Notes under the pieces: generated by a model
What the model was told of the DNA's origin: nothing
Database searches by the model: none
Seen by the model: the letters and a program-made list of their open reading frames with translations, nothing else
Program-made: the position numbers and the translations under genes
Shown: positions 49,033 through 50,372 of the stretch, in pieces
How the letters are laid out: the number at the start of each line of letters is the position of its first letter
Numbering within the stretch: the stretch's first letter is position 1
NCBI RefSeq assembly: GCF_006440735.1
Contig: NZ_VFUA01000003.1
Span: forward strand, 1 to 64,000
Length of the DNA stretch: 64,000 nt
Source of the DNA: Mesorhizobium sp. B2-7-1
Lineage (GTDB): Bacteria > Pseudomonadota > Alphaproteobacteria > Rhizobiales > Rhizobiaceae
Direction of reading: 5' to 3'

Positions 49033-49416
49033 GTGAGAATCTGGGTGCGCAGCGGACCCGGTTTTCACGCCGGAAACGAGATTGAGCAATGGTTGCGCCA
49101 AGTCATCGACAGCGACCACGCCGCAGCGGTCATCGGTTGTCTTTATGAACTCGCAGACATCGGGCGAAACGGGTTCATCGAGAGGCGAGGTCTCTGGCAG
49201 CGGGAGGGCTTCCAGGACGTTTGGACCTTCCAGTCGATGTCGTTCCGGATCGCGGCCACGATTCCAGGCGACGGACGCGCCCAGACATTCGATTTTTGCC
49301 TTGTCGGATCCGAGCGGGCGACGGGGCCGGATGGCGGCAAGACGACAAAACCGGCATTTCTCGACCTGGTGAGGTGGCGATTGTCGGTCGGATCGGAATT
49401 GGAATGGATCCTATGA
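49033..49416 (+). CDS. Small protein in toxin position (possible RelE/HigB-like)
   Basis: A 127-residue soluble protein, GTG start behind GGAGAAG, overlapping the HTH gene by 4 nt. Its size, its place as first gene before an XRE protein, and segments such as IGCLYELADIGRNGF, RRGLWQREGFQDVWTF and SFRIAATIPG recall the RelE/HigB/DUF891 group of mRNA-cleaving toxins, but the similarity is weak by eye. It could equally be a partner protein with another role. Acidic and basic residues near the C-terminus (KTTKPAFLDLVRWRL) match the charged end often seen in that fold. Confidence 0.5.
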   Translation: MRIWVRSGPGFHAGNEIEQWLRQVIDSDHAAAVIGCLYELADIGRNGFIERRGLWQREGFQDVWTFQSMSFRIAATIPGDGRAQTFDFCLVGSERATGPDGGKTTKPAFLDLVRWRLSVGSELEWIL

Positions 49417-50372
49417 GCGACCACAATTCGAGGCTGCTCGGCGAAATCGAGCAGGACAGCGCCTATGCCGCCCCTCTGTTGCGCGTGCGCGCCGCTCGCG
49501 AGACCGCGGCGCTATTGCGCGGCTTGCGCAAGCAGGCCGGCCTGACCCAGCAGGCGATTGCCGCCAGGCTCGGCGTCAGCCAGGCGCGCATCTCGCAGGT
49601 GGAAAGCGGCGTGCTGGATTTTCTGCCGCCTCTGGATTTCATCTATCTGTTCACCGACGCGTGCGGCGCGCGGCTGAGCTTGCATGCCGAGGAGAAGAAC
49701 GCGGTGACTGCCGCAGCGCCGATGCGGGCCGTGGCGACTCCAACGGCCATGGCGGCTGGACTTGCGGAAGAGCCACTGGCCGAGCGTTGGCGGGCAGAGG
49801 CCGACGCCGGAGAAGCCAGGGTAGCAGACGTCGCCGCCCCGGCGCGCCTGCGGACCTATCGCATAGCCGCGCGCGGCACCGCGCTGGGGCCCGAAACGAT
49901 AACCCGCGACATCCCCGATGCCGGCGACGAGGCGTTGCGGCATCTCGACGACAATGGGATTGCCAGGGTTGGTGTCCGCCTGCGCGAAGGAGACATCCTC
50001 GTCGGCAAGACGACTCCCATCAGCGACGACTCGACGGAGAGCCCGGAAACCCGACTGCTGCGCGCCATCTTCGGCGAGAAGGGACCGGTACGCGATACAT
50101 CCCTGCGCATGCCTGCCGGAACCACCGGCACCGTCGTGGCGGTGCATGATGGCAGTCGTTCGGGCGAAAGATCGGTCGCGGTCGACGTCGCGCTCGAGGA
50201 AGCGCGCGAGTTTGCCGTTTCGAGGGAAGCCGCGCCGGAGGCCATTCCCGAAAGTCTGGAAATTCTGACCAGGGAGATGGAGTCGCGGAGAGCGGCCATC
50301 GGGACGCCGGCCTCAGTCGCGCCGGCCGAGCCGATCCCGGAGCCGCCGCGGACGCTCAAGGAAAGCGAGTGA
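49413..50372 (+). CDS. XRE helix-turn-helix protein fused to an RNA polymerase beta-flap-like segment
   Basis: The 319-residue protein has a Cro/C1-type HTH in residues 31-73 (LRGLRKQAGLTQQAIAARLG, VSQARISQVESG), a low-complexity linker (95-150), and then a segment (about 153-245) that follows RpoB closely: LGPETITRDIP, EALRHLDDNGIARVG, EGDILVGKTTP, ESPETRLLRAIFGEK and VRDTSLRMPAGTTGTVV. In RpoB this is the beta flap with its tip helix, the docking site of sigma region 4. After it come a weaker continuation and a helical tail (262-290). No other RpoB parts are present, so it is not a polymerase subunit. It probably binds its own operator and also a flap-binding factor or the polymerase. It overlaps both neighbours by 4 nt. 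Confidence 0.8.
   Translation: MSDHNSRLLGEIEQDSAYAAPLLRVRAARETAALLRGLRKQAGLTQQAIAARLGVSQARISQVESGVLDFLPPLDFIYLFTDACGARLSLHAEEKNAVTAAAPMRAVATPTAMAAGLAEEPLAERWRAEADAGEARVADVAAPARLRTYRIAARGTALGPETITRDIPDAGDEALRHLDDNGIARVGVRLREGDILVGKTTPISDDSTESPETRLLRAIFGEKGPVRDTSLRMPAGTTGTVVAVHDGSRSGERSVAVDVALEEAREFAVSREAAPEAIPESLEILTREMESRRAAIGTPASVAPAEPIPEPPRTLKESE

What the first reader, a model, noticed from the sequence alone, without database searches (positions are those of the whole stretch)
49413..50372. A helix-turn-helix protein carrying a copy of the RNA polymerase beta-flap
The sequence shows an XRE-type HTH (residues 31-73) and, after a linker, about 90 residues that follow RpoB in order and spacing: LGPETITRDIP, LDDNGIARVG, GDILVGKTTP, LLRAIFGEK, RDTSLRMPAGT and GTVV. 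In RpoB this region is the beta flap, and LLRAIFGEK is the flap-tip helix that holds sigma region 4 and is a target of several phage and elongation factors. No other RpoB parts are present. A DNA-binding protein with a decoy flap could capture a sigma factor or another flap-binding protein at its operator, or displace the true flap. I know of no described system of this build. The match to RpoB is seen directly; the mechanism is inference.
Basis: partly seen in the sequence, partly recalled or inferred. Interest (0 to 1): 0.93.

Follow-up and report, generated by a model that had tools for sequence, protein, structure and literature searches.

The report
Antitoxin carrying an RNA-polymerase flap
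In a few rhizobial bacteria a predicted toxin-antitoxin operon encodes a helix-turn-helix protein that carries a copy of the RNA polymerase beta flap, and relatives of this protein carry pieces of other cell proteins at the same spot, so the piece is likely a swappable bait that would sense flap-binding proteins, perhaps from phages, and free the predicted toxin.

The parts
49000..49017 (.). Palindrome TATAATCCAGGGATTATA before gene A; predicted operator of the HTH protein
   Evidence: 8 of 9 pairs match; in 8 of 8 loci such a site (7-9 of 9 pairs) ends 12-15 bases before gene A; mean identity between loci 14.0 of 18, against 5.1 of 18 for a control stretch 20 bases upstream. Only site in the 7.03-Mb genome at up to 2 mismatches, control 0. 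A strict scan for perfect arms of 6 or more finds it in 6 of 8 loci. Binding not tested.
49033..49416 (+). Gene A, 127 aa, predicted toxin with HigB/RelE fold
49413..50372 (+). Gene B, 319 aa, HTH + RpoB flap + trace of the RpoB C-terminus; predicted antitoxin with bait; ATGA overlap with gene A
49506..49682 (+). XRE-type helix-turn-helix, residues 32-90
   Evidence: PF13560 2.9e-11; dN/dS of residues 1-92 0.06 and 0.12 in two comparisons
49689..49841 (+). Linker, residues 93-143, no fold predicted
   Evidence: pLDDT 30-31 over residues 91-140
49842..50198 (+). RpoB beta-flap fold, residues 144-262
   Evidence: dN/dS of residues 145-262 0.30 (0.16-0.62) and 0.26 (0.13-0.42)
50043..50078 (+). 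Flap-tip helix, residues 211-222, with LLRAIFGE
   Evidence: helix 211-219 in the model, low confidence there; column conservation
50244..50291 (+). Trace of the RpoB extreme C-terminus, residues 278-293
   Evidence: Aligned with the clear tails of P0006-P0008; PF04560 end matched weakly in P0006 (E 0.0056, below cut-off)
50369..50710 (+). Gene C, 113 aa, predicted small membrane protein; overlaps gene B by GTGA
   Evidence: Aligned in 7 loci; two hydrophobic stretches over threshold in 6 of 7, one in the window copy; best Pfam match of the window copy E 0.058, below cut-off
46315..47271 (+). argB (name recalled), conserved neighbour
   Evidence: tblastn matches in L003-L007; argB-like frames by eye in L010-L012

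Best explanation
The HTH-flap protein sits in the antitoxin position of a predicted HigBA-like toxin-antitoxin operon, and the RpoB flap behind its HTH is likely a swappable bait that would bind proteins which normally bind the polymerase flap and so loosen the antitoxin's hold on the toxin. Shown by calls: the RpoB origin of the flap, the three-gene operon, co-occurrence of genes A and B in the genomes searched, the conserved palindromic site in front of eight operons, and unrelated domains at the same place behind the same HTH in relatives. Predicted from models or sequence: the flap fold, the HigB/RelE fold of gene A, the membrane location of gene C. Inferred and untested: that A is toxic, that B neutralises it and represses the operon, that the flap binds its usual partners, and that the trigger is a phage flap-binding protein (phage sigma region 4, or P7/gp39/Q-like factors) rather than a host sigma factor.
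For: Operon: A/B and B/C overlap by 4 bases. Gene A fold: HigB/RelE-family toxins head both fold lists. A and B co-occur at the thresholds used: the same 5 of 394 family genomes and the same 3 genomes of the genus (146 searched with the HTH, 144 with gene A). Palindromic site in 8 of 8 loci, 14.0 of 18 bases alike between loci against 5.1 in the control stretch, unique in the genome. Swapped domains: of 14 long proteins with this HTH, 9 flap, 2 ABC, 2 LuxR-type, 1 other; 4 genomes have a short tail. Both ABC copies lost the Walker A Lys, the LSGGQ motif and the catalytic Glu that three related exporters keep. Flap-tip face kept. Flap dN/dS below 1. Precedent: lambdaCI-flap fusions bind phage P7 in two-hybrid tests, and phage N, Q and gp39 are said to bind the flap (PMC3985653, passages). 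Three T4-like phages of rhizobia and Agrobacterium lack gp33 but are described as encoding RpoE-type sigma factors (PMC6630229, passage). HigB of HigBAC is freed when lambda tail protein breaks the HigA-HigC contact (PMC11980606, passages).
Against: No toxicity, binding or phage data. Only one of five AF2 models of gene A is confident, no Foldseek match reaches E 0.001, and gene A matches no Pfam, NCBIfam or PADLOC family. The captured ABC ATPase and LuxR regulator are not obvious phage targets. The closest LuxR relative in this genome also lacks the receiver Asp by eye, so that copy was not clearly inactivated by capture. The flap tip is also the better-kept part in true RpoB (tip 0.85, rest 0.80 identity to own RpoB; fusions 0.69 and 0.56), so its conservation is only modest evidence. 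Flap dN/dS is not clearly different from the linker's. The LuxR forms are known here only as proteins; I did not see their operons. No match to gene A in plasmids, phages or IMG/VR, so this is not a typical mobile defence module.
Confidence: 0.4

Rival explanations
1. The flap makes the antitoxin report on the cell's own sigma factors: it binds host sigma region 4 or another host flap ligand at the operator and tunes transcription of the operon, without any phage.
For: Conserved palindromic site just before the operon; flap-tip face kept; lambdaCI-flap fusions at an operator work as two-hybrid baits.
Against: Does not explain the ABC or LuxR pieces at the same place; sigma region 4 binds the isolated flap about 4-5 fold more weakly than phage P7 in that assay.
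Confidence: 0.22
2. Neutral gene capture: ends of host genes were fused to a tolerant antitoxin C-terminus, and the flap is a passive, folded tail.
For: All three captured pieces are C-terminal parts of, or nearly whole, donor-like proteins, as a simple gene-end fusion would give; short-tail relatives persist without any domain; the tip is the better-kept part in RpoB too.
Against: Flap dN/dS below 1 in two comparisons; the tip face is kept while other positions invariant in the 16 RpoB compared (such as K899 and H841) drifted; both flap ends are kept and the model folds as a closed flap.
Confidence: 0.18
3. The tail makes the antitoxin depend on a partner for folding or stability, like the chaperone-addiction tails of TAC modules; the captured domain sets which partner is needed and gene C helps at the membrane.
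For: Third conserved gene in the operon; TAC modules have a third gene that protects the antitoxin (PMC5105189, search listing only; PMC11980606, passages).
Against: No SecB-like match in gene C; gene C is kept while the captured domain changes, and also in short-tail operons.
Confidence: 0.15
4. The fusion is an assembly or annotation artefact.
For: None found.
Against: Nine protein clusters, the window's own included, from several source databases; the complete Mesorhizobium sp. AR07 chromosome carries it.
Confidence: 0.01

Closest known systems
HigBA type II toxin-antitoxin modules (RelE/ParE-superfamily toxin, HTH antitoxin)
   Same: Toxin-position gene first, overlapping HTH gene, palindromic site upstream, HigB/RelE fold predicted for gene A
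   Different: Gene A matches no Pfam or NCBIfam toxin family; the antitoxin carries a copy of a host protein; a membrane-like gene is added
TAC modules (toxin-antitoxin-chaperone; HigBAC, CmdTAC)
   Same: Three genes; in the known cases a phage protein disturbs the complex and frees the toxin (PMC11618068 abstract; PMC11980606 passages)
   Different: No SecB-like match in the third gene; the antitoxin's extension is a folded host-protein copy that differs between relatives
Integrated decoys of plant NLR immune receptors (recalled, from no call)
   Same: Copies of host target proteins fused to a receptor and swapped between relatives
   Different: Here the chassis is a bacterial antitoxin and sensing is untested; one search for 'integrated decoy' with toxin-antitoxin and phage defense found no paper
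lambdaCI-beta-flap two-hybrid bait
   Same: HTH protein fused to the RpoB flap (E. coli 831-1057), able to bind phage P7 (PMC3985653 passages)
   Different: Man-made; the natural protein spans the same flap with about half the residues

Membership tests
RpoB beta-flap domain | Significant sequence match over the flap | tested here: met
   PF00562 1e-15; RpoB 2.4e-29; TIGR02013 2.1e-34
RpoB beta-flap domain | Flap fold | tested here: met
RpoB beta-flap domain | Binds sigma region 4 or other flap ligands | not testable with these tools
   Only conservation of the tip face seen
Type II TA, HigBA-like | Toxin with RelE/ParE fold | tested here: met
Type II TA, HigBA-like | Toxin matches a known RelE/HigB/gp49 sequence family | tested here: inconclusive
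   No Pfam toxin family at E up to 1 in 10 members; the fold search does find the superfamily
Type II TA, HigBA-like | Toxin-first, overlapping HTH antitoxin gene | tested here: met
   ATGA overlap from the 49413 start; A and B frames also overlap in L003-L005
Type II TA, HigBA-like | Operator palindrome for autorepression | tested here: inconclusive
   Conserved palindromic site in 8 of 8 loci; binding and repression not testable here
Type II TA, HigBA-like | A is toxic and B neutralises it | not testable with these tools
   Needs expression assays
TAC (toxin-antitoxin-chaperone) | SecB-like chaperone as third gene | tested here: not met
   No SecB family among Pfam matches of 7 gene-C members; gene C has hydrophobic stretches
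Decoy or bait sensor | Copied host domain is catalytically dead | tested here: inconclusive
   ABC copies 2 of 2; LuxR copies lack the Asp but so does the relative in this genome; the flap has no catalysis
Decoy or bait sensor | Different host domains at one place on one chassis | tested here: met

The most novel reading that the evidence does not exclude
A bacterial family of 'swap-tail' antitoxins that works like plant integrated decoys: copies of the host's own proteins (RNA polymerase flap, a dead exporter ATPase, a LuxR regulator) are mounted on one HigBA-like chassis, and a phage protein that attacks the original binds the copy and fires the toxin.
Probability: 0.28. Interest if true: 0.93.

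Novelty: new variant of a known kind. Interest (0 to 1): 0.78.

Why it matters
How toxin-antitoxin modules sense what triggers them is a long-standing open question. Here the likely sensor can be read from the sequence, because it is a copy of a protein with known partners, and one chassis comes with three different captured domains and a short-tail form as natural controls. If the flap is a bait, this would be a natural RNA-polymerase decoy mounted on an antitoxin and a modular way for bacteria to guard chosen host proteins.

Tried and rejected
Sigma70_r4 matches of the HTH (PF04545): taken as ordinary HTH resemblance, not pursued. Short RpoB-only proteins: the few I read (P0011, P0012, P0013, P0016 and others fetched) look like fragments or frameshifted rpoB, not free flaps; I did not read all. 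Viral contigs: gene A gave no relative; the HTH gave 3 weak partial matches, not followed. Plasmids and phages: no match for gene A; gene B was not searched there. NCBIfam and PADLOC gave no match for gene A (window, L007, L010) or window gene C; Pfam gave weak matches only (gene A best E 0.25; gene C best E 0.0026, PF06635 in one member, cut-off not shown). The fold list of gene A also holds ParE, RelE and YafQ toxins, so RNA cleavage rather than gyrase inhibition is not shown. Whether the flap was captured once is unsure: P0009 lies on a long branch and the fusions form one group in 59% of bootstrap trees; in the HTH tree the flap group needs 2 changes and is one group in 16%. A lone weak match to gene A in a genome without the operon (G155, E 5e-4, one TGA inside) was left aside. 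ABC relatives: of the many I aligned 4 and dropped L043 (wrong frame), leaving 3. Palindrome control: in 500 shuffles of each stretch the observed pairing is reached 0-13 times in five loci but 57-71 times in L004, L005 and L011, so pairing alone is not striking in those three; the weight is on the conserved sequence and place.

Full report

Aligned to the RpoB of the same genome, P0006-P0008 end with the last ~25 residues of RpoB; the window keeps a weak trace; P0009 shows no tail match. The simplest history, inferred, is capture of the 3' end of an alphaproteobacterial rpoB and loss of its middle.

Family. Of the 120 listed matches of 150, nine clusters are HTH+flap (P0001-P0009, P0001 being 98% identical to the window protein). 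A search with the HTH alone, limited to proteins of about 175-558 aa, gave 14 proteins among 448 candidates: nine flap, two with an ABC ATPase (P0015, P0125), two with a LuxR-type regulator (P0010, P0124), one other (P0126). The LuxR-type part is a GerE HTH behind a degenerate receiver-like part (NarL match). Four genomes have the HTH with a short tail only: Nitratireductor sp. B36 (L006), Chelativorans intermedius (L007), G255 and G300. In the HTH tree the four labels need 3 changes together, the least possible (shuffled mean 7.4), but many forks are weak.

Predicted operator. An 18-bp palindromic site (7-9 of 9 pairs) ends 12-15 bases before gene A in 8 of 8 loci, whatever gene B carries; between loci the sites share 14.0 of 18 bases, a control stretch 20 bases upstream 5.1. 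Part of this may be promoter conservation. Pairing alone is weak in three loci (L004, L005, L011: 57-71 of 500 shuffles as good), a strict scan finds perfect arms of 6 or more in 6 of 8, and in the window inverted repeats of arm 7 or more are not rare (49 of 457 tiles). The window's version is unique in the genome at up to 2 mismatches, control 0.

Place. In the nine loci I looked at (window, L003-L007, L010-L012; L012 and L006 look like one genome) the operon lies near argB, with a radical-SAM gene between in the window, L003 and L004. In four operon-free stretches fetched, of 18 other genus genomes with the neighbour gene, three have 99, 100 and 198 bases between the radical-SAM and Lrp genes where the window has 1869, and one has an unrelated insert of about 4 kb.

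Selection. dN/dS of the flap is 0.30 (0.16-0.62) and 0.26 (0.13-0.42) in two comparisons; HTH 0.06 and 0.12; linker 0.54 (0.18-1.95) and 0.35 (0.12-0.75). So the flap is constrained, less than the HTH, and not clearly more than the linker. Tip residues L910, L911 and I914 are kept in 9 of 9 fusions and F915 in 7 of 9, while K899 and H841, invariant in the 16 RpoB compared (own plus 15 taken from the hits), vary. The tip is also the better-kept part in RpoB itself (0.85 against 0.80; fusions 0.69 against 0.56), so this is modest support.

Other captures. The ABC copies read GSGQS, LSRGE and LDSP where three related exporters read (G/A)GKS, LS(A/G)GQ and LDEP. The LuxR copies lack the phospho-acceptor Asp by eye, but so does their closest relative in this genome (47% identity), so this is no proof of inactivation on capture. 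I saw no operon for the LuxR forms.

Mechanism. Phage factors that contact the flap or sigma region 4 are known: P7 binds a lambdaCI-flap fusion, 4-5 fold more strongly than sigma region 4 does, and the same paper names N, Q and gp39 (PMC3985653, passages). Three T4-like phages (Atu_ph04, phiM9, P10VF) are described as lacking gp33 and encoding RpoE-type sigma factors (PMC6630229, passage). In TAC modules a phage protein disturbs the antitoxin complex and frees the toxin (PMC11618068 abstract; PMC11980606 passages). I therefore prefer: B holds A and represses the operon; a flap-binding protein on the copy weakens this hold; A acts. Each of these steps is inferred. Host sigma sensing (0.22), neutral capture (0.18) and partner-dependent stability (0.15) remain.

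Literature. Ten searches were made; five were aimed at such a system and five at context. I read titles and abstract starts of the listed papers only (15 of 1,325) and saw no HTH-flap antitoxin or integrated-decoy TA. Subscription papers and preprints are not held, so it may be in print elsewhere. The argB name and the plant-decoy comparison are recalled.

Noticed in passing
L005:6001-7185, P0015, P0125: HTH protein fused to an exporter-like ABC ATPase whose Walker A Lys, signature and catalytic Glu are all replaced; same operon next to argB.
   Followed up: partly
P0010, P0124: Same HTH fused to a LuxR-type regulator without a receiver Asp; a free relative in this genome (L053, 47% identity) also lacks it.
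   Followed up: partly
L039:2226-6298: In one operon-free genome of the genus the same intergenic place holds another ~4-kb insert (by eye a methyltransferase-like and a GGDEF/EAL-like gene), so the place may be an insertion spot.
   Followed up: no
window 43982-44521 (-): An ORF that reads by eye like an ECF sigma factor about 4.5 kb upstream of the operon; no family search run; a host flap ligand near the locus may be coincidence.
   Followed up: no
L016 (G155:C56:50872-51093): Weak distant match to gene A (E 5e-4, 32% identity) with one TGA inside, in a genome without the operon.
   Followed up: no
P0126: 206-aa protein with a related HTH (51% identity) and a different C-terminal part without a precomputed Pfam domain.
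   Followed up: no
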